Origin: Tricholoma matsutake
Taxonomy: Eukaryota > Basidiomycota > Agaricomycetes > Agaricales > Tricholomataceae
Length of the DNA stretch: 64,000 nucleotides
Direction: 5' to 3'
NCBI GenBank assembly: GCA_026075535.2
Contig: AP026547.1
Span: forward strand, 4,898,001 to 4,962,000
Under the pieces are notes generated by a model, which was not told the origin of the DNA, did not search any database, and worked only from the letters and a program-made list of their open reading frames with translations. This document shows positions 48,204 to 60,573 of this stretch, one piece after another. The position numbers were made by a program, and so were the translations under genes. Position 1 is the stretch's first letter, and each line of letters begins with the position of its first letter.

Positions 48204-49050
48204 TAGTGTTTGAAGGTCTGGTTTGGTCCAGTTTTTTTCCACTTTGGAACAAAACTGGAACCAAAACCGGTTGCATTACATTCAAAGTCTACATAAAACC
48301 GGACTGAACCGCACGAAACCGGTTCATAGTGGTCCAGTCCAGTCCAACTACTCACTTAGGTCAGTCTAAACTGACATTAGTATATATAATAAATACAATT
48401 CTAAAAGTAAACTAAAGCCCCTCACAAGCAGGGGCCTGTGAGGGGGCAAGCACACATGTAAATAATAAATAGAAAATGAAAACAGCCCCTGCCGCCTCAC
48501 ATTTGGTGTGAGGGCAGGGGGGCAGCTGTTGACCATCATCGTCATTGTTGTTGTTGTTGTTGTCGGCATTGGCATTGGCATTGTCAGCATTGGCATTGAC
48601 GTCATTGGTGTTGCCATTGTTGTTGTCAGCATTGCCGTCGCCATTGTTGGTGTGGTGCTGTGACGTGGCATTGGTGTCAACAGCCCCACTCCCCCTACGA
48701 GCAGGGGCTCGCAGGCAGGGTGGAGGCGTTGGTGAGTTGTTGCGGCTGCTGTTGCTGTGTAGAAACAGGACCCCATTACCACCCTGTGAGCAGATGCTCA
48801 TAGCGGCAGTGTAGGGCGCAGGTAAGGGGTGTTTCTTGGTTCAGGCTTCGTCGCTACCAGTAAAAACCTGATAATGAAAGAGGGAAAGTTAGTTAGTTAA
48901 AAAATAGAAGAAATATTCTAACATACCTGGGGCCCAAATGATGCCAGTCATCGTTTGGACCCATTTCATTCATTCATTCAGCTTGGGCTGCTGTGTTGTT
49001 GCTCCATCTTCCACCCTGCAAGCAGGGGCTCGCAGCAGTGGCATATGCAG

Positions 49051-50236
49051 TGATAGGTCGTCTCCTCGGCTCAAGGACCGATTCACCACTTTAGCATCAT
49101 TCTAATCACGTCAGCTAACTCCTATGACATCCCAGACGCAGCGCGACCCACTCTATCGATCGTGATATCATATCGACTGCGTCGAAACATCACCAGCGAC
49201 ATTGATCGTATCAAAAGCCCACATCGCACAACCTTAGGACTACCCCGAAAGTCACTAAGATTCCCCTACACGACCATCGAACATCCCCGACCAACTTTGA
49301 ACAAGCCGCAACCGCGATCGAGCATCATCGACCATCGTCGAGTGTCATCGATCAATATCGAGAAACTATGAGCGACATCGGGTGCCGCCTTTGTTATCTA
49401 AATGGTGGAAGACCATGCACTAGGATGTATTCCAACTCATGCTCAAACCTGCTGATCATAGGTCAGCCTCGTTCCAAGTCCCTATCGCACACAGAACCCA
49501 CTGGATGCATTATTGCAAGACTTAGTGCAGTTTATACACAAAGGACAGTCTCTTTTAGTTCTTTCCTTTTATTACTCTTTCATCATATGATATATATATC
49601 TTTCTTGTTTGGATTCCAGTCTCCTTTATGGCCTTGTGCCTTAACTCATATCTTTTGCCTCATGTTCTACACATGTTTCTCATTCCATTTTAGGAAGTTT
49701 CTTTAAAACATATAAAACTCTGTAGTATCTACTTGAAAATAGGAAGAAATCATCTTCACATATCATCTCATATACAGTTCTAAGCATCCGATCAACTTTC
49801 TAAAACAATCTAAGTCTCTGCAGGTTTTCTCGATCGACGAGAAACCTCTGCAATCGTCGCATCCTCGATCCTCCCTTGATCCTCTCATCATTAGTTCTAG
49901 CAACCCTTCCAACACTTTATAGCAGTTTGCCGCACCCTTCGTATACCATTGACCTATCGAAAGGTCCCCATAATTCACATATCGACCATCGACAATAAAA
50001 CTTGTTCGCCATCGATCTCATCGATCGCCCTCGATATTGATCAATACTCGATCGGACCACGACAAACGCCTTTGTCTCTCATAACACTACCTTCACAACT
50101 AGTGTTAACTAGTAATCTTCTCAGAGGTTTGACCACAAACTTTTGGAACATCTCGCAACCCTCCTCTGACTCGTCACAAACATCATCGATTGCCTCATCA
50201 GCAGTTCTGGTGGTTTTCCTGGGTTGAGCATCATCA
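49051..50236 (+). repeat. Gypsy 5' LTR (1186 bp)
   Basis: TGATAGGTCGTC to GTTGAGCATCATCA. Same length as the 3' LTR; all differences I could read are transitions at CpG. Confidence 0.95.
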
Positions 50237-53200
50237 TTTTTGGAGCCCACTGCGAGGGTGTCTGAATCATTTCATCGTCAGACCAACCTCGACTTCCTCG
50301 GCTTAGGCCAACACAAGCGAGAACCCTTCGCATCGATACTCGCCACGCCTTCGAATCTCTTGAACAATCGGGAGATATTCTAATTCCAGTTTCCGAAGCA
50401 GAATCTACTCATCGTAGACTATTTCCTTCACCTATATCATTGCCTTCCACATCATCATCTACTTCTTCATCATCATCATCGACCTCTTCATTTATCCTTC
50501 CAACAACTTCGACACCTCTACCATCTATTACACAAGTCTTAACCCCTACCCCTAGAGTCATCGCATTCATGACTACCCAAACCGTGATGCCAGCTTGTGG
50601 GCACTTGACCGCTCCGAAATTTGACCCGACTCAGCCTTGAGAGCTTCGACAATACTTCGAAGAGCTTGAACTATTATTCCCGACCTGCGGTGTTACTGAA
50701 TCAAATCTCATGAAGAAACACGCTTGTTGCTACCTCGACACCGACTCGTCAGAACTCTGGGAATCGCTTCCAGAGTATCAACCCGGCACATCATTCAATG
50801 AATTTAGAACAGCAGTACACAAACTCTATCCCGGCTCGGAAGACGATTGCAAGTGGAGCATATCGGACATGGACAAATTAGTGGGAGAACAGCTACACAT
50901 TGGGATATTCGACGCAAGCGATCTAGGAATGTATTATCGCATGTTCTACAACATTACTCACTTTTTGCAAGCAAAGAATAGGATCTTGGAAGCCGAGCAA
51001 AGCAGAGCTTATGTTCGAGGATTCCAACCCGGCTTATGGACTCAAATTGCTCAACGACTCGAACTCAAATTCCCCGACCATTATCCCGACGATCCATATC
51101 CACTCAACGACATTCACGATGCGGCAAAATTCATTCTAGCAGGCTCCAACACATCGAACTCAGTAATCCACCAATCGACCTCTTCATCGCACTCGACATT
51201 GAACATCAGAAATACGGGCACCTCGTCACCTGGAACTATTATGATCAAAACCGAAGATCTAAATGCGATGTTCAAACAATTTGCTAGCACCATTGCTACG
51301 CATATCGCAGGTACTAAAAATCCTCGCACTAATTCGGCAGACAGACAGGCACATATTGACGCACTCCTTTGCATATTTTGCGGTTTATCCGGACATTTTA
51401 TCCCTGACTGTATGGTTTGTCAGTCGTACCTGAACGAAGGGAAGTGTAAGCGAAACGCAGAAGGAAAGATCGTACTTCCTAACGGACAATTCACCCCTCA
51501 AAGTATCCCTGGCAGGTTTATCAAGGAATGGATCGATGAATGGTGGAAACGCAACCCAGACGCAACCCCAGCAGCAACACTTTTATTCAGCATCGCACCA
51601 TCGGCACCTTCGACTTTGACTAGTTCAACCTTGGCTGCGATCACTTCGATAACAGAGTCCGACGCCATTTCTATATCGGGATTGGAGACGAAAGGCATTT
51701 ATCATAACTCGACATTGACAGCTGACTCCGAAGATAGAATAGCGGCTCTCAAGCACGAAATATTCACGCTTCGAAGTGGTCGACCATTTTTGCGTCCAAA
51801 CAAAGAGGTTCGAACTTCGGTTCCAGCCACGACAACTCCCGTCCCTGCATCGTCAACATCTACTGGTACAGTCCCACCACCCTCAACATCTTCATTGACA
51901 ATGGTCAACCCTTCGACTTCAACTACCGCTCCTAGCATTTACAGGTCCAGTTAAGTCCGGTTTTTTATGTCTAAATGGGGCAACCGCAACTGCAACCGGT
52001 CCAAGACTGACCCAGATATTGCTGAACTGCAACCGGACCGCATAGGACCGGTCCATATCAGTCCATGGACCGAAAAAAACCAGTTCGAACCGACTTTTTG
52101 TTGTAAAATTTGTTGTACCAATATAACCCATATATTTCTCACCAACTATTAACCGGACCATCTCACCATTACACAAGCAGTTGGATATTGTAATTCCCCG
52201 GTGACTGGTCCAACTTTTAAGAGATTTTATCAAGATCTGACAGAGATATAACCAAAACAAAAGTACATTGTATTCCATGTTGTAGTTTGTAGTTTGTAGT
52301 TACAACTTGTTAGGGCTGTTAAATGAATCAAATACACATGGTATAGATGTTTATGTATGTTATTCCTTTGCCTTGGATAATGTCCAATTGTGCCCAACAT
52401 TTTTGTAGCACAAGGTATAAACAGTACAGTCACAGCTGCTCAAATGACATCAAAATACTCACATCAAAATGTATTTTGTCATATCTCTCTCAGTTCTCAA
52501 CCGTTTTTGATGGTCCAGGGAGCGGAATTGAAGCCATTATGTGTGGGAATCAGCGGGTATAGTGCACGTGACCTATAAACCGGTTGAAACCGGTTCGGAT
52601 CGGTTTTCATCGGTTCAATGATATTTTTCAAAGCAAAAGACTGGCAACTGGACTGCAAAAGACCGGTCCTATAAATAGCCACCTGACGAACCGGACTTCG
52701 GTTCAGTTCAGTCCGGTTTCGGTCTTTTTCCAGTTTGTAGGACCGGACCTTTAAACACTAACCGCTCCAACATCGACATCGACCACTTCGCCATCGACCA
52801 CCATACCCCCAACGCAAACCTCGGTACACCCATATGCATCAGTCAGGGAGAACACCTATTTGCCACCACACAAAAGGAACTTCGCTGGCGCATCAAAGGG
52901 TAAGGAAAAAGACAGACCATCATATGCAACACAGGCACCGGTACAGAACGAGAAAATTGCGCATGATATATTTGTGCGCTCGATGAAGATGCCGATCGTC
53001 ACGCTGACATCCGAAGAACTACTCTCGCTTTCACCAGAGGTTCGAACAAAATGGAGAGAACAGGTCACACCAAAATGAGTCCCACAATCCAGAAACAATG
53101 CAACGAACATGTTTAGTCCCGACGCAATCATCGTGCCTGACCCATATGAGACTTATATTAGCAGTCTTCGACCTGGTGAAATCCCTCAGCCTTTTGTCGT

Positions 53201-53651
53201 CGCTAAAGAAACTTCATTGATTAGATCAGTTATTATGGACATCCATGGTAACAACCAGGTAGAAAGTGTTGTCGATCCCGGTTCCTCGATCATATCAATG
53301 GCCAAAGATGTTTGCCATGAACTCGGTCTAGCATACGACTCCTCGATTAGGCTTCCAATGCAGTCTGCTAATGGGACTGTGGATGAAACACTCGGTTTAG
53401 CACGCAACGTACCCTGCAATCTCGGTGGAATCACCCTATACATGCAGATACATATTATTCGGGACCTGGCATACGATATTCTACTTGGACGACCTTTCGA
53501 TGTCTTGACAGAAAGTGTCATTAGGAACTATCAGAACGAAGTGCAAGCCATCACGATATGCGATCCTAACTCAACTTGGACCACTACAATTCCCTCGATA
53601 CCTCGATCACACCGTTGTCGAAAAGTAGTTCGAGAGGATTTTCAGCGTTAG
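50237..53651 (+). pseudogene. Gypsy gag and retropepsin, interrupted by a MITE
   Basis: Gag is in one frame from about 50270; a Ser/Thr-rich start has no clear ATG. TGA at 50638-50640 precedes LRQYFEELELLFPTCGV. The capsid-like part (YLDTDSSELWESLPEYQPGT; RAYVRGFQPGLWTQI) ends in a zinc knuckle, CIFCGLSGHFIPDC. The MITE at 51933-52760 plus its 8-bp duplication shifts the frame; taking it out puts 52769-53651 back in phase. TGA at 53076-53078. The protease region reads ESVVDPGSSIISMAKDVCHE and DLAYDILLGRPFDVLTES. Its active site is DPGS rather than the usual DTG/DSG, a form I know from this basidiomycete Gypsy lineage. Confidence 0.88.
51933..52760. mobile_element. hAT-like MITE copy 2 (828 bp), TSD ACCGCTCC
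   Basis: TAGCATTTACAGGTCC to the complement of TAGTGTTTAAAGGTCC; flanked by perfect ACCGCTCC (51925-51932 and 52761-52768). It is homologous end to end with 11344-12189. Confidence 0.95.
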
Positions 53652-55372
53652 AGAATGAAATTTCGGAACAGTGCACTTTCATCATCTCATTCGACTCTTC
53701 TAACTCCTCTATATTTATTGAGTGCACTGCAAATATCCCCGAAATTGACTCCTCCGAAGAATTATCCACAACACTTTCCAACTTATATTTATCTGCGTGC
53801 GACGAGTTCCACGTTCCTCGAAACGCCTCGATGGTGTTTATACCTATGCGACCTTCTTCATCGTCAGTTTCCCCTTCCTCAGTTATTTCCAACAATCCAC
53901 AGTCTAGTTATTTATCGACGAAGAAAAAGTATAAACCAGTCACACAGAAGGTCCATCCAATCATGGCCAGACTACCCGATCATTTTAGAATTATTCGACG
54001 CATCGAGGGCGATCCCCTCCAAGACATGCCTCCACTAAATCCCCATCCTCCGATATTCAAACCAACTCCTCGATATAACCTCGAACGCAAAAACATCATC
54101 GATCGAAATCATCCAGAAGATTTCTTATGGCCTCAAGAACGAGACCTCATGCATGACTTCATTCGAAACCAGCAAGCAGGGTTCGCATGGACCAAAAATG
54201 AACGAGGAAGGTTTCGACCCGATTTCTTCCCCCCTATCGAGTTCCCAGTCATCCCGCATACCCCTTGGGTTGAACGCAATATCCCCATACTGCCTGGTTT
54301 GTATGAACAAATTTGCGAGATGCTGAAAAAGAAGATCGAAGCAGGAGTCTATGAGTCATTGAACTTGTCATACCAATCGCGATGGTTTTGCGTTGCGAAG
54401 AAAGATGCAAAATTGCTCCGAATAGTCCACAGCCTCGAGCCGCTAAACCAAGTTATGATTCAGCACTCAGGCATCGTCCCGATCCCTGAGCATTTAGCTG
54501 AACAGTTTGGAGGACGCGCTTGTGGTGGAATGTTGGATTTATATGTTGCATTTGACAAAAGGCTCGTATCTGAATCCTCTTGAGATCTAACAACTTTCCA
54601 GACACCATTCAGCGCACTTTGAATCGTCACCCTACCAATGGGTTGGACAAACTCGGTTCCAATCCTACACGACGATGTAACTTTCATCCTACAACCTGAG
54701 GTCCCTCACATCACGATCCCTTATATCGATGACACACCGGTGAAGGGTCCGAAATCAGAATATTGAACGATCGGTGGGTCTTATGAAATGATCGTCGACA
54801 ACTCAGGCATTCGACGATTCATGTGGGAGCATTTCGAGAACCTAAATCACATTGTCCAGCGCATGAAGTATTGTGGTGGGACGTTCTCTGGACCGAAATT
54901 ATTTGCTTGTGTCCCTGAGATAATCGTTTTAGGTCATCGATGCAATATTCAAGGCCGAATGGCTGACCCGACGTGTATCGATAAGATCCAGAAATGGGGT
55001 CCGTGTCGTACACTCACAGAAGTTAAGGCGTTCTTAGGAACGATTGGAGTTTGTTGAATTTTCATCCAAAGTTTTGCACATCGAGCAGCTCCGCTAATCA
55101 ATCTTACTCGAAAAGATGTGCCCTTCGAATTCGGCCCATCTCAGGTAGCAGTGCAAGAAGATCTCAAGCATGCACTCCTAAACTCGCCAGCGATTCGAGC
55201 CATCGACTATACCTCGAACGCCCCAGTAATCCTCGCAGTCGACACATTGAGCATTGCCATCGGCTATTTCCTAATGCAATGCGACTGCGATAACCCTCGA
55301 AAGCAATGCACCATGGACCAGATGGTCTTTCACGACATCCTCGACAAACCGAAGACGACGATGTCGAAGTAG
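53652..55372 (+). pseudogene. Gypsy reverse transcriptase with RNase H deleted
   Basis: The RT frame (from 53576, shifted relative to the protease) reads MARLPDHFRIIRRIEGDPLQ, SYQSRWFCVAKKDAKLLRIV, ACGGMLDLYVAFD, TLPMGWTNSVPI, and catalytic IPYIDDTPVKG, then RMKYCGGTFSG and LTEVKAFLGTIGVC. TGA codons at 54581, 54620, 54764 and 55055 break it, most where relatives have Arg. RNase H begins (APVILAVDTLSIAIGYFLMQ, NPRK) and then jumps at about 55300 to MHHGPDGLSRHPRQ, which in relatives lies after the RNase H core. Roughly a hundred codons are therefore missing and the frame shifts. Confidence 0.85.
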
Positions 55373-56924
55373 AAGAAGAATTCAGTGACTGGATCGACAA
55401 ACTACACGGTTTCGTTCACCAAATCAACCCAATCTCGATTCGACCATTCCCCTCTCACACGACTTATCCCACTTTCACCCAAGCTTCAGATTTCAGTAAG
55501 GGGGAGGACGTTTCGTACAAAGACATACCTAGATCGGACAAAGCAAAGAAAGACGACGAACGATTACTGCTCGTTCATAAATGGTTAGACAATATGGTGC
55601 GACCCCCACATCTATCAGACACAGAGTACGCTACCTTCGTGCAATATTGCACCGAGTTCTTCATAGATTCCGGCAAACTATGGCGAAAAGATCGTCACGG
55701 CAAACACAAGATCGTAGCAATTCCAGAGCGTCGCATCGATATTATCCGGTTGTCACACGACCATATTGGCCACAAAATGATCTTCGCCACAAAGTCTCAC
55801 ATCGCACTATGATTCTGGTGGCCCAACCTGAAAGCCGATATCACATGGTACATCTGAACATGCCACTACTGTCAGTTGCGACAAACACGAAATCTTCTTA
55901 TTCCACCAATTGTTGCCACACCCGCTCCTCTATTCGGAAAAGTCTATATCGACACAATGCACATGCCACCTTCCGGTGGATATCGCTATATAGTACAAGG
56001 TCGATGTTCGATATCGTACTGGCTGGAGTTCAGGATGCTTCGCAACGAAACAGCGAAGACCATCGGTGATTGGATCTTCGAAGAAATCATTTGTCGTTGG
56101 GGCTCACTTTATGAGATTGTTACTGACAACGGCGCAGCATTCCTTTCTGCTCTCGAGTATTTGTTGAAGCGATATCATATCAATCATATTTGGATAAGTG
56201 GGTACAATTCTCGTGCCAATGGCCTCATTGAACGAGCCCACTTCGATGTGTGACAATTGCTCTACAAGGCCGTCGATGGTGATCAAACTCGATGGTCAGT
56301 TGGGACCTACTCGGTCTTTTGGGCAGAACGGGTAACAGTTCGAAATTGAATGGGCTGTTCGCCCTATTTTGCGATCACAGGTTCTCATCCACTCATCCCT
56401 CTCGACATTTCAGAAGCGACATATCTACGACCACCACCCGATTTGATACTCTCCTCCACCAATCTCATCGCCCAACGTGCTATTGCACTCCAGAAACGCT
56501 CGACTGATCTTGAGGTACTCTACTCTAGAGTCTACACTGCTCAACGAGAAGCTGTGAAACACTTCAAAGAAGTTCACAAGCGAACGATTCGAGACTACCA
56601 TTTCGAAAAAGGTGACCTCGTACTCATGCGAAACACACAGATCGAAAGGCTCTTAATCAAAAAATGCGAGCTCGATATCTCGGCCCACTCATAGTCATTG
56701 CAAGAAACTACGGTGGCGCTTATATTCTTTGTGAGCTCGACAGATCAGTTCTTCATCAACCAGTAGCAGCTTTCCAAATTCTACCCTATCTAGCACAGAA
56801 ATCAATTCCCCTTCCTCCAAACTTCTTCGATATCGACGATTGTCGGCTCGAACAACTTCGAACAACATTGGACGTCGATGGAGACATCGATGAGGGCATT
56901 CCTGACCTCGACAAAGATGAATAA
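55306..56924 (+). pseudogene. Gypsy integrase
   Basis: Zinc finger: RLSHDHIGHKM ... CHYCQLRQT (H-x3-H, C-x2-C). Core: KVYIDTMHMP (Asp), EIVTDNGAAF (Asp), NSRANGLIERAHFDV (Glu). C-terminal part: GCSPYFAITGSHPLIPLDI, KGDLVLMRNTQIE, then after a 1-nt loss near 56640 MRARYLGPLIVIARNYGGAY to DLDKDE. TGA codons at 55810, 55855, 56251 and 56347 replace Arg of the family (RFWWP, IRTCH, DVRQ, RMGCSP). Confidence 0.88.
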
Positions 56925-57248: not shown

Positions 57249-58635
57249 CTACTGGGACTCCTCCCATTTCCTCTCTAACACCTCGATCTCCTCCATCAGC
57301 ACTTCCACTTCCAACTTTTTTCGCACCAGGACTTCTGCCAAATACCGACAACGGAGTCTTGCTGCGTCCGACTGCGTCATCTCGTCCTCCACCGCCATCG
57401 ACGCCCCCTGAACCATACCCACGACCTCAGGTTCAACTTCTCGTGCTCTCGCTTTCCCCTTCCCCTTCCCCTTGTCATTCTCAGCCAACTTCGCCTTCGC
57501 CTTCATCATGCGTTTTGGGCGCTTGTCAACTTTTGAGGGCCTGGCCTCCACGTTTTGGATGGGCTGGATAGCCCAGATGCATATCGCTAAGTAATCATAC
57601 AGATTAGCAATTGTATTGGTTATGCAGAAGAATCACTTACTACATCTGGCAGTCGACAACTGCATCGACTCCGCATTATCCTTTGTAGCTCGCTTGGAGC
57701 TCACCTTCTTCCTCAACTCGCCTCGTCGGAGTCCTTGCCTTGACACTCCCTCCCAGTAGCACCCCTGTAGCCCTTGAGTGCATCGCTTGCACTTTGGGGC
57801 GCCCTCCTCGACGATACACTCCTGAGTCATCCTTAGTCCGGCACATCGATCACACTAAAGCAATATCGAAGGCATGATTAGCCTGAACGATATTGAAAGA
57901 AAATAATGACTTACCGGCCCATGGAAGGTGATCAGCTCACCTTCCTCTACGTGCACCCGCTTTGTGACCATGGGCTCCTCATCCAGTTCATCCTCACCTT
58001 CCTCCTCGTCGTCCATCTCATCTGCCTTCCTCTTCTCGACGATCCGCTTGACATCCGGTAGGTCGTTGACCAGGGGCGCTGCTTTGTCCGCGGCCTCATC
58101 CCGATTGATTGAGAGGCACATCAGCTCGAGCGCAGCTGTACGATCACGGAATTCGTCCTTTGAAATGGTTTTGGCCCAGACTTCGGCCAAGAAAGCTCGA
58201 CGCGCCTCGACCAGCGCATCTCGTCGTTCCTCGATCCTCTTTGCTTTTGCCTCGACGGCCACCTGCCGAGCCTCCCTCTCCTCCTCTCTCTTCCTCTCTT
58301 CCTCAACCTTCCTTGAATACTCCACAAAAAGATACTTCCCACCCCACAAAACCCAATCCTTGTGAGCGAATGGTACGAAGAGGCCGACTGCCTCGTCTAA
58401 CATCACCTGCACATGTTCGTTGTGTGCCTCGTCAAATGACCCAATCAGGTCATCATATTCAGCCTATCAAATGAGATTAGGAAGCAGATAAACCCAAGAA
58501 AAGGGAAGGACATACCATTTTCTCACAAAAAACACGATGCCACACTTCGAAGTCCAACTCTTTGGCTTTGCCAGCCTCGGGCATCGATTTCGCGTGTTCG
58601 AGGATGGGAAGAGCAAGTTCGGCGAGGATAGACAT
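57249..58635 (-). CDS. Antisense accessory gene of the Gypsy element: coiled-coil, Cys-cluster protein, 4 exons
   Basis: Runs opposite to gag-pol between integrase and the 3' LTR. Exons: 58635-58516, 58463-57915, 57854-57641, 57586-57249; 1221 nt, 406 aa, no stop or shift. Introns are 52, 60 and 54 nt with GTATGT/GTAAGT donors and TAG acceptors. The start MSILAELALPILEHAK is followed by ELDFEVWHRVFCEKM; DEAVGLFVPFAHKDWVLWGG; a charged coiled coil (about residues 85-145); an acidic stretch (DDEEEGEDELDEEP); then a Cys cluster CDRC-x9-C...CKRC-x6-C that resembles a Zn2-C6-like knuckle; a Lys/Gly-rich segment and a final leucine-rich coil (LVRKKLEVEVLMEEIEVLER). I recall similar hypothetical proteins in Agaricomycetes; their function is unknown. 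At least eight CGA codons remain unmutated here, unlike gag-pol. Confidence 0.82.
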
Positions 58636-58783
58636 GTTGTCGAGGAGATGGATGGAAGAGATCGAATGAAAAGAGAAAAGTTCAAACCACAACGCATCTT
58701 AAATCAGCAATCAACAATGTCACATGACCCAGTTGTTTCGGCTTGACTGACCGGGATGGTCAGAATGTCAGTAAGGGGGAGGA

Positions 58784-59969
58784 TGATAGGTCATCTCCTT
58801 GGCTCAAGGACCAATTCACCACTTTAGCATCATTCTAATCACGTCGGCTAACTCCTACGACGTCCCAGATGCAGTGCGACCCACTCTATCAATCGCGATA
58901 TCATATCGACTGCGTTGAAACATCACCAGCGACATCGATCGTATCAAAAGCCCACATTGTACAACCTTAGGACTACCCCGAAAGTCACTAAGATTCCCCT
59001 ACATGACCATCGAACATCCCCGACCAACTTTGAACAAGCCGCAACCGTGATCGAGCATCATCGACCATCGTCGAGTGTCATCGATCAATATTGAGAAACT
59101 ATGAGCGACATCGGGTGCCGCCTTTGTTATCTAAATGGTGGAAGACCATGCACTAGGATGTATTCCAACTCATGCTCAAACCTGCTGATCATAGGTCAGC
59201 CTCGTTCCAAGTCCCTATCGTGCACAGAACCCACTGGATGCATTATTGCAAGACTTAGTGCAGTTTATACACAAAGGACAGTCTCTTTTAGTTCTTTCCT
59301 TTTATTACTCTTTCATCATATGATATATATATCTTTCTTGTTTGGATTCCAGTCTCCTTTATGGCCTTGTGCCTTAACTCATATCTTTTGCCTCATGTTC
59401 TACACATGTTTCTCATTCCATTTTAGGAAGTTTCTTTAAAACATATAAAACTCTGTAGTATCTACTTGAAAATAGGAAGAAATCATCTTCACATATCATC
59501 TCATATACAGTTCTAAGCATCCGATCAACTTTCTAAAACAATCTAAGTCTCTGCGGGTTTTCTCGATCGACGAGAAACCTCTGCAATCGTCGCATCCTCG
59601 ATCCTCCCTTGATCCTCTCGTCATTAGTTCTAGCAACCCTTCCAACACTTTATAGCAGTTTGCTGCACCCTTCGTATACCATTGACCTATCAAAAGGTCC
59701 CCATAATTCACATATTGACCATCAACGATAAAACTTGTTCACCATCGATCTCGTCGATCACCCTCGATATCGATCAATACTTGATCGGACCACGACAAAC
59801 GCCTTTGTCTCTCATAACACTACCTTCACAACTAGTGTTAACTAGTAATCTTCTCAGAGGTTTGACCACAAACTTTTGGAACGTCTCGCAACCCTCCTCT
59901 GACTCGTCGCAAACATCATTGATTGCCTCATCGGCAGTTCTGGTGGTTTTCCTGGGTTGAGCATCATCA
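58784..59969 (+). repeat. Gypsy 3' LTR (1186 bp)
   Basis: TGATAGGTCATC to GTTGAGCATCATCA, preceded by the polypurine tract at about 58772-58783. Confidence 0.95.
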
Positions 59970-60573
59970 GCGGGTGGACATGGGGGCCATGTTGGTGCCA
60001 TCTCGTTGTCACAATATAGTTAGAGCCTAAAAAAGAGAGGAAAAGATTAGTTAGTTGAAAAAGAATGTGAAAAAACATTACCTGCACCCCAAATGACAGC
60101 TATCATCATTTGGGCTCCTGCTTGGGAACATTATCTGATGGGGGGAACAGGCGTTGACAGGGTGGTGGTGCTAGAAGGAGGCAGAGGGGTGGTTGTTGAT
60201 GTTGATGTAGCATGGGAGTGGAAACGAAAGTGGCACCACATTTTTGTTTGGGTGCACAAATGTGATCAAATGGTCCGTGTGCACCCACAGGGTATTTAAA
60301 CACTCACTTTCTTAGTTCTTTTGTCCTCGGGCTCGTCCCATTTTCAATTTATTTAACTTTATAGTATCGTAATGTAATACTATGTGTATAACCAGTTACA
60401 ACGGGTTGGAACCGACTTTTGTCAGTTCCAAATAAATATACAAATTTATGAAACTGCAACCGCTGCCATACAAAAACTAGGGCAACCGCAACCGCAAAAG
60501 AACCTGACTGTGGTTCAGTCCGGTTTGGTTTCAGTTTTTTTTCCAGTTCAATGAACCGGACCTTCAAACACTA

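What the first reader, a model, noticed from the sequence alone, without database searches (positions are those of the whole stretch)
57249..58635. Intact spliced antisense gene in a dead Gypsy element
A four-exon, 406-codon gene lies opposite to gag-pol, just before the 3' LTR. It has three textbook introns and no defect, while gag-pol has ten stops, two frame shifts, a deletion and an insertion. At least eight CGA codons in it are preserved. A retrotransposon cannot easily carry spliced introns in its own sense RNA, but antisense introns survive retrotransposition. The protein has coiled coils, an acidic patch and a Cys cluster (CDRC...CKRC). It may be a regulator or assembly factor of the element, or a gene kept for the host. 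This is my best candidate for an undescribed system.
Basis: partly seen in the sequence, partly recalled or inferred. Interest (0 to 1): 0.88.

Follow-up and report, generated by a model that had tools for sequence, protein, structure and literature searches.

The report
Spliced antisense gene of mushroom retrotransposon
A large family of jumping genes in the matsutake mushroom carries, on the opposite strand to its own genes, an extra intron-containing gene that natural selection kept working while the elements were spreading, although the copies examined have mostly decayed since.

Summary
The gene is real: minus strand 58635-57249, four exons, 406 aa, three GT-AG introns, inside a 10.9 kb Gypsy-type element of Tricholoma matsutake chromosome 10. 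It belongs to the element family: 434 places match its exon-1/intron-1 joint. Of 150 integrase matches, 119 have the gene antisense downstream, 31 have none listed, none is contrary. Outside CpG sites, old shared changes are mostly silent (77 replacing: 119 silent), new private ones are not (64:20; p=1e-8); with CpG sites included the contrast fades (p=0.06). So the protein was selected while the element spread, and inserted copies then decay. The window copy's intactness is about what chance gives: 4 of 37 copies lack stops, 3.2 expected. Best reading: an element-encoded, probably nuclear accessory protein with a conserved six-cysteine cluster and a basic tail. Antisense genes before the 3' LTR are a known kind (plant Grande/Retand, fungal Boty); this one has three introns and no match to the Retand domain; Boty's could not be compared. 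Its halves have been exchanged between elements. No RNA evidence was available.

The parts
49051..50236 (+). 5' LTR, 1186 bp
   Evidence: 97.0% identical to the 3' LTR; 35 differences, 32 of them CpG-type transitions
50641..51954 (+). gag frame (open, with a CCHC-like knuckle CIFCGLSGHFIPDC); first ATG of the frame at 50710
   Evidence: named by reading the sequence, no family search was run on it
53079..56924 (+). pol remains (protease to integrase), broken by stops and frame changes
   Evidence: domains named by reading
55306..56649 (+). integrase-side pol stretch used as comparison frame; 4 in-frame stops in 448 codons in this copy
58516..58635 (-). antisense gene, exon 1 (40 codons, conserved N-terminus)
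   Evidence: same exon end in P0009 and P0010
58464..58515 (-). intron 1, 52 nt, GTATGT...TAG
   Evidence: P0002 reads through an intron at the same position
57915..58463 (-). exon 2 (183 codons): predicted helices, then acidic patch
   Evidence: model with mean pLDDT 69.8
57855..57914 (-). intron 2, 60 nt
57641..57854 (-). exon 3: six-cysteine cluster C224,C227,C236,C245,C248,C255 (CX2CX8CX8CX2CX6C)
   Evidence: each Cys kept in 35 to 37 of 37 copies; last three present in P0011
57587..57640 (-). intron 3, 54 nt
57249..57586 (-). exon 4: basic tail (15 of 37 residues K/R at 310-346) and nearly invariant C-terminal helix LVRKKLEVEVLMEEIEVLERKWEESQ
58698..58703 (-). TTTAAG, TATA-like, invariant in the 36 sequences aligned there, 63 nt before the ATG; candidate core promoter (inferred)
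58773..58783 (+). polypurine tract AAGGGGGAGGA next to the 3' LTR
   Evidence: region conserved and read antisense in P0002, P0009, P0010
58784..59969 (+). 3' LTR, 1186 bp; 148 bp separate it from the antisense ATG

Best explanation
The element family encodes, antisense between integrase and the 3' LTR, a spliced accessory protein that the retrotransposon itself depended on. Shown by computation: the gene structure, its fixed place, the invariance of the splice dinucleotides, and purifying selection on the protein during the spread of the family followed by decay after insertion. Inferred: RNA polymerase II starts in the 148-bp spacer or the start of the 3' LTR and runs opposite to gag-pol; three introns are removed; the protein goes to the nucleus, binds nucleic acid through a zinc-type six-cysteine cluster and a lysine-rich tail, pairs through its helices, and regulates the element's own transcription or a nuclear step of its copying, as has been proposed for antisense proteins of retroviruses (HBZ of HTLV, recalled) and of plant Gypsy elements. 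The introns survive because transposition uses the sense RNA, in which they are not splicing signals.
For: Gene model. Splice dinucleotides 0/12 variable against 76/139 in intron interiors. Non-CpG replacing:silent 64:20 among private variants of well-sampled copies against 77:119 among shared ones, p=1.3e-8, ratio of ratios about 0.2; integrase 75:31 against 14:37. Of the six frames of the gene region the proposed one gives the strongest signal (p=3e-6); frame -2 gives a weaker one (p=2e-4), the other four none in that direction. Each exon alone points the same way (p 0.005-0.04). Place: 37 of 39 fetched copies have integrase upstream and LTR downstream; 119 of 150 integrase matches, 31 none listed, 0 contrary; 5 of 5 chosen deeper copies without a listed integrase begin beside an antisense LTR end, 4 of 5 with integrase. 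P0002, P0009 and P0010 carry the LTR/PPT reading upstream of exon 1. Six cysteines conserved.
Against: No RNA or protein evidence. With CpG sites included, replacing:silent differs little between private (136:78) and widely shared (233:187) variants (p=0.06). No family match for any part and no useful structure: exon 3 model pLDDT 53, exon 2 without a PDB match at E<=0.001. A nucleic-acid role rests on composition and cysteine pattern alone; single deeper copies lack one cysteine (L050, L052; P0011). A link between the cysteine half and the LTR it might bind is weak (partial correlations 0.21 and 0.31), and one search shows the cysteine half exchanged while the LTR stays.
Confidence: 0.7

Rival explanations
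1. A host gene captured in antisense orientation and carried as a passenger: introns were brought along from genomic DNA and the element gains nothing.
For: Three introns in an element look like a captured host gene; the relatives found in the protein database (P0001-P0011) have no named function.
Against: A pure passenger would not show purifying selection along the element lineage nor stay beside the 3' LTR in distant relatives. Capture may still be its origin; no host copy outside an element was found, but none was searched for beyond the capped lists.
Confidence: 0.12
2. The gene is kept for the host: the intact copy in the window is a domesticated gene in a dead element.
For: The window copy has no stop, frameshift or splice defect; L009 and L011 also are intact.
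Against: Stop-free copies are as many as chance gives (4 of 37, 3.2 expected). CpG decay in the window copy is no less in the gene than in integrase (0.56 against 0.60). The LTRs differ at only 3 sites of 1186 outside CpG-type transitions, so the insertion looks young.
Confidence: 0.04
3. The antisense transcript acts as RNA (dsRNA or silencing trigger, or interference with sense transcription) and the protein is secondary.
For: The antisense transcript would overlap the 3' part of the sense RNA (inference); RNA roles are discussed for plant antisense ORFs (PMC7264820, passages read).
Against: The bias towards silent changes and the six conserved cysteines show selection on the protein. Both roles can coexist.
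Confidence: 0.1
4. Chance open frame with chance splice sites.
For: A sense-strand frame of 145 aa also lies over the gene.
Against: Frame-specific selection, invariant splice dinucleotides, relatives at 32-45% identity.
Confidence: 0.01

Closest known systems
brtn, antisense gene of Boty (BcGypsy1) retrotransposons of Botrytis cinerea (Zhao et al. 2011; I saw its title in the reference list of PMC8365987 and mentions in PMC8365987 and PMC7264820, not the paper)
   Same: Fungal Gypsy element with an additional antisense gene; PMC7264820 cites Boty as carrying one between pol and 3' LTR
   Different: Ascomycete host; sequence and splicing could not be compared, because its sequence was not held
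Antisense aORFs of plant Gypsy elements: Grande gene23, RIRE2, Retand TRP28 (PMC7264820: section 5 and passages; PMC11963269: passages)
   Same: Between pol and 3' LTR, antisense, in most copies, conserved like element proteins, proposed DNA-binding or nuclear
   Different: No TRP28 match here; the word 'intron' has 0 occurrences in both papers; sequences of gene23 and RIRE2 were not compared
HBZ of HTLV-1 and other retroviral antisense genes (recalled; passages on HTLV in PMC11963269 and PMC7264820)
   Same: Works like: antisense, promoter by the 3' LTR, spliced, coiled-coil nuclear regulator (HBZ details recalled)
   Different: HBZ is a bZIP protein (recalled); no bZIP match here; unrelated host and element
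Fungal Zn2Cys6 (Gal4-type) zinc cluster, PF00172
   Same: Six conserved cysteines in CX2C...C...CX2CX6C order
   Different: Spacing CX2CX8CX8CX2CX6C; no PF00172 match in the whole protein or in 12 exon-3 sequences
marY1, the described Gypsy element of T. matsutake (PMC10211490, passages read)
   Same: Host and superfamily
   Different: marY1 is 6,047 bp with 426-bp LTRs; this element is 10,919 bp with 1,186-bp LTRs

Membership tests
Antisense additional ORF between pol and 3' LTR (aORF-3R) of LTR retrotransposons | Lies between pol and 3' LTR, antisense | tested here: met
Antisense additional ORF between pol and 3' LTR (aORF-3R) of LTR retrotransposons | Present in most copies and conserved like other element proteins | tested here: met
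   119 of 150 integrase matches have it, 31 have none in the capped lists (two of those 31, at C4:7457130 and C8:9411074, do have a P0003-like gene antisense downstream by the coordinates); replacing:silent shift in gene like integrase
Antisense additional ORF between pol and 3' LTR (aORF-3R) of LTR retrotransposons | Transcribed from its own promoter | not testable with these tools
   no RNA data; only a conserved TTTAAG
Retand TRP28 (PF04195) antisense ORF | TRP28 domain | tested here: not met
   Pfam scan
Zn2Cys6 zinc cluster PF00172 | Match to the family model | tested here: not met
Zn2Cys6 zinc cluster PF00172 | Six conserved cysteines | tested here: met
   35-37 of 37 copies each
Zn2Cys6 zinc cluster PF00172 | Spacing CX2CX6CX5-12CX2CX6-8C (recalled) | tested here: not met
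   second gap is X8 here
Retroviral antisense bZIP gene (HBZ type) | bZIP domain (recalled) | tested here: not met
   no bZIP match
Retroviral antisense bZIP gene (HBZ type) | Spliced antisense transcript started in the 3' LTR | not testable with these tools
   splice sites conserved but no RNA
brtn of Boty | Sequence homology to BRTN | not tested

The most novel reading that the evidence does not exclude
The element carries its own three-intron, zinc-cluster regulator on the antisense strand, and the nucleic-acid-binding half of that regulator is exchanged between otherwise close elements (L035: exons 3-4 differ by 10.6% from the window copy while integrase differs by 0.6% and the LTR by 1.1%). 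That would be a swappable specificity module by which competing elements recognise or evade one another.
Probability: 0.2. Interest if true: 0.75.

Novelty: new variant of a known kind. Interest (0 to 1): 0.5.

Why it matters
The review that I read in part (PMC7264820) says that the functions of antisense genes in LTR retrotransposons are unknown and that a role of the antisense RNA itself cannot be ruled out. Here many copies in one telomere-to-telomere genome separate two phases: constraint on the protein while the element was spreading, decay afterwards. The three antisense introns also act as natural markers that the copies came through sense RNA. If the regulator role holds, it gives a fungal parallel to retroviral antisense regulators and a test case for exchange of gene halves between elements.

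Tried and rejected
Spliced (retro-copied) versions as proof of splicing: patterns across the exon 1/2 and exon 2/3 joints, up to 2 mismatches, gave 0 and 0 places; the positive control on the unspliced exon 1/intron 1 joint gave 227+207 (reversed-pattern control 1+1). The exon 3/4 joint was not searched, and more diverged lineages could escape the patterns. So none was found, and splicing stays inferred.

Domain naming: Pfam (whole protein: only DUF7096, below its cut-off; exon 3: only DUF5830, below cut-off), PDB by sequence (0 matches), AlphaFold models of exon 3 (pLDDT 53) and exon 2 (69.8), Foldseek on the exon 2 model (7 matches, none at E<=0.001). None names the protein. PF00172 has 21 matches in the genome, none at the window gene.

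Selection on CGA codons after insertion: CGA to TGA is somewhat rarer than change at other CpGs (TG share 0.28 against 0.31-0.43), but CGA to CAA is depressed as well (0.31 against 0.35-0.50), so this is not specific to stops.

Co-evolution of the cysteine half with the LTR: partial correlations 0.31 and 0.21 over 29 copies, and counter-examples. Not supported.

Target-site duplication: the five bases on either side of the element are not identical; unexplained.

CpG sites: at these alone, replacing:silent does not differ between private and widely shared (four or more copies) variants (gene 37:24 and 191:116, p=0.89; integrase 31:25 and 164:102, p=0.45), and with all sites together the gene gives p=0.06 and integrase p=0.51. 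I read this as repeated deamination and set these sites aside before the main count; a reader who does not accept that should weigh it against the claim.

Full report
What is there. The minus strand from 58635 to 57249 encodes 406 amino acids in four exons with introns of 52, 60 and 54 nt, all GT...AG. The element around it has LTRs at 49051-50236 and 58784-59969, 97.0% identical over 1186 bp. The window is part of a genome of 161,040,721 bases in 13 contigs, the total printed for the telomere-to-telomere Tricholoma matsutake assembly, and the contig lengths that I compared agree (PMC10211490, passages). The window lies on contig 10, taken as chromosome 10.

It is a family gene, not a single gene. 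The DNA search scored 40 of 459 candidates and returned 43 matches at 80-100% identity, some of them pieces of one copy. The exon 2 protein search scored 150 of 675 candidates, listing matches down to 66% identity. A pattern over the exon 1/intron 1 joint, up to 2 mismatches, found 227+207 places, with 1+1 for the reversed control. A database relative, P0003, finds a further set in the same genome: 149 matches at 46-67% identity (150 of 748 candidates scored); none of its ten best places is in the list (compared by eye). So at least two lineages of the gene live in this genome.

Place. Of 39 fetched copies, 37 have integrase upstream and an LTR downstream; L010 and L033 lack the LTR in the fetched stretch, and in L011 it lies 1,164 bp away. 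By hit coordinates, 119 of 150 integrase matches have the gene antisense downstream, 31 have none listed, and none is contrary; 88 of 150 exon 2 matches have a convergent integrase, 62 have none listed, and none is contrary (lists are capped, so 'none listed' is not absence). Five exon 2 matches without a listed integrase, chosen and not random, were fetched: all five begin beside an antisense LTR end and show exons 1-4, four of five with integrase.

Is it coding? Of 40 copies, 37 could be aligned over the gene. All 37 keep the GT and AG of the three introns; 4 of 37 have no stop, 20 of 37 no frameshift, and 3 of 37 are fully intact. In five copies the frameshift calls include a shared one-base gap at the stop codon. 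The twelve splice dinucleotide positions never vary, while 76 of 139 intron-interior positions do. Decay is mostly CpG deamination: 32 of 35 differences between the window's two LTRs. I therefore counted changes at sites where no copy has CpG. Private changes in well-sampled copies are 64 replacing to 20 silent; changes shared by two or more copies are 77 to 119 (p=1.3e-8). Private changes of six divergent copies, set apart because they include old lineage changes, are 35:34. Integrase gives 75:31 and 14:37. With the six included the private count is 99:54 (p=3e-6). Reading the same bases in the other five frames gives the effect in one, more weakly (frame -2, p=2e-4), which I ascribe to shared degenerate positions; frame +2 gives p=0.01 in the opposite direction. 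With CpG sites included the contrast is 136:78 against 233:187 (p=0.06) for the gene and p=0.51 for integrase, as repeated deamination after insertion would give. So the protein was under purifying selection along the spreading lineages, as integrase was, and was released after insertion.

The window copy. It is one of 4 stop-free copies of 37, where a Poisson draw at 2.46 stops per copy expects 3.2. CpG retention is 0.56 in the gene and 0.60 in the integrase stretch. Nothing singles this copy's gene out for continued use.

The protein. Exon 2 is predicted helical, followed by an acidic patch; exon 3 holds six cysteines kept in 35-37 of 37 copies each; of the five other cysteines C37 is invariant too and four vary. 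Exon 4 has a lysine/arginine-rich tail (15 of 37 residues) and a nearly invariant C-terminal helix. Of the five deeper copies, L052 has Tyr for the sixth cysteine and L050 Trp for the third. The relative P0011 keeps the last three cysteines but has Tyr where the third is expected. No library names the protein.

Relatives in the protein database. Three searches gave P0001-P0002 (990 candidates scored), P0003-P0010 (991 scored) and P0011 (817 candidates), from JGI and ENA contigs without organism or function name. The best matches in this genome are 61% for P0003 over its whole length (67% for one piece) and 54% for P0009 (65% for one short piece), so these two are not copies of anything scored here; I take them to come from other fungi (inference). 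P0002 reads through an intron at exactly the exon 1/2 joint, and P0001 runs past the exon 2 end into 'VS', as intron 2 would read. P0002, P0009 and P0010 also carry, upstream of exon 1, the antisense reading of the polypurine tract and LTR start (PIILPLTEILTVPV against PIILPLTDILTIPV). So the gene, its exon ends and its place are older than the copies sampled here. I could not fetch those contigs.

Exchange of halves (non-CpG differences from the window copy). Fourteen close copies differ by 0.5% in integrase, 0.7% in exons 3-4, 1.1% in exons 1-2 and 1.5% in the LTR on average. L035 differs by 0.6%, 10.6%, 3.3% and 1.1%; L038 by 1.2%, 10.6%, 4.3% and 2.9%; L030 and L037 by 9.9-10.4% in exons 3-4 and 1.9-3.4% in the LTR, integrase not measured. 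L026 and L028 differ by 2% in integrase and 4-5% in the LTR, but only 0.2-0.7% in exons 3-4 and 7-8% in exons 1-2. In trees, L030, L035, L037 and L038 form a clade for both gene halves but sit inside a 23-of-36 clade for the LTR. Recombination, for example template switching between co-packaged RNAs (inference), has shuffled the gene. I did not run a formal breakpoint test.

Mechanism. Most likely an element-encoded nuclear accessory protein made from a spliced antisense transcript starting near the 3' LTR. A TTTAAG invariant in the 36 sequences aligned there lies 63 nt before the ATG. Regulation of the element's own transcription or of a nuclear step is inference by analogy with antisense genes of retroviruses and of plant Gypsy elements (PMC11963269 and PMC7264820, passages and one section).

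Known or new. [quoted passage not shown] brtn named in PMC8365987). My paper searches for such a gene in Agaricomycetes or matsutake showed none: searches (1 paper, unrelated by its abstract; 0 papers), and the listings, seen as titles and abstract starts only. The library lacks most subscription journals. New here, as far as these searches go, are the three conserved introns, the six-cysteine cluster, the two-phase selection result and the exchanged halves: a new variant of a known kind.

Noticed in passing
G000, e.g. C8:3275224-3275796 and C1:7689407-7689985: A second lineage of the same antisense gene (P0003-like, 46-67% identity to P0003) is spread through the genome; its elements were not examined.
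   Followed up: partly
window 49031-49051 and 59969-59989: The element has no exact 5-bp target-site duplication although its LTRs are only 3% apart and 32 of their 35 differences are CpG-type transitions.
   Followed up: partly
window 51955-53078: About 1.1 kb without a long gag-pol frame separates the gag frame from the protease/pol frame and holds a 119-aa minus-strand ORF; possibly an insertion.
   Followed up: no
window 48366-48801: Overlapping 129- and 138-aa minus-strand ORFs, one with an Asn/Asp-rich repeat, just outside the 5' LTR.
   Followed up: no
L009-L047, gene alignment: CpG sites have decayed to TpG or CpA at every codon position to a similar degree (kept 0.41-0.55 by class).
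   Followed up: partly
window 57249-57330: The last 26 codons of the antisense gene are almost invariant among copies far more diverged elsewhere; a cis-acting role of this DNA was not separated from protein constraint.
   Followed up: no
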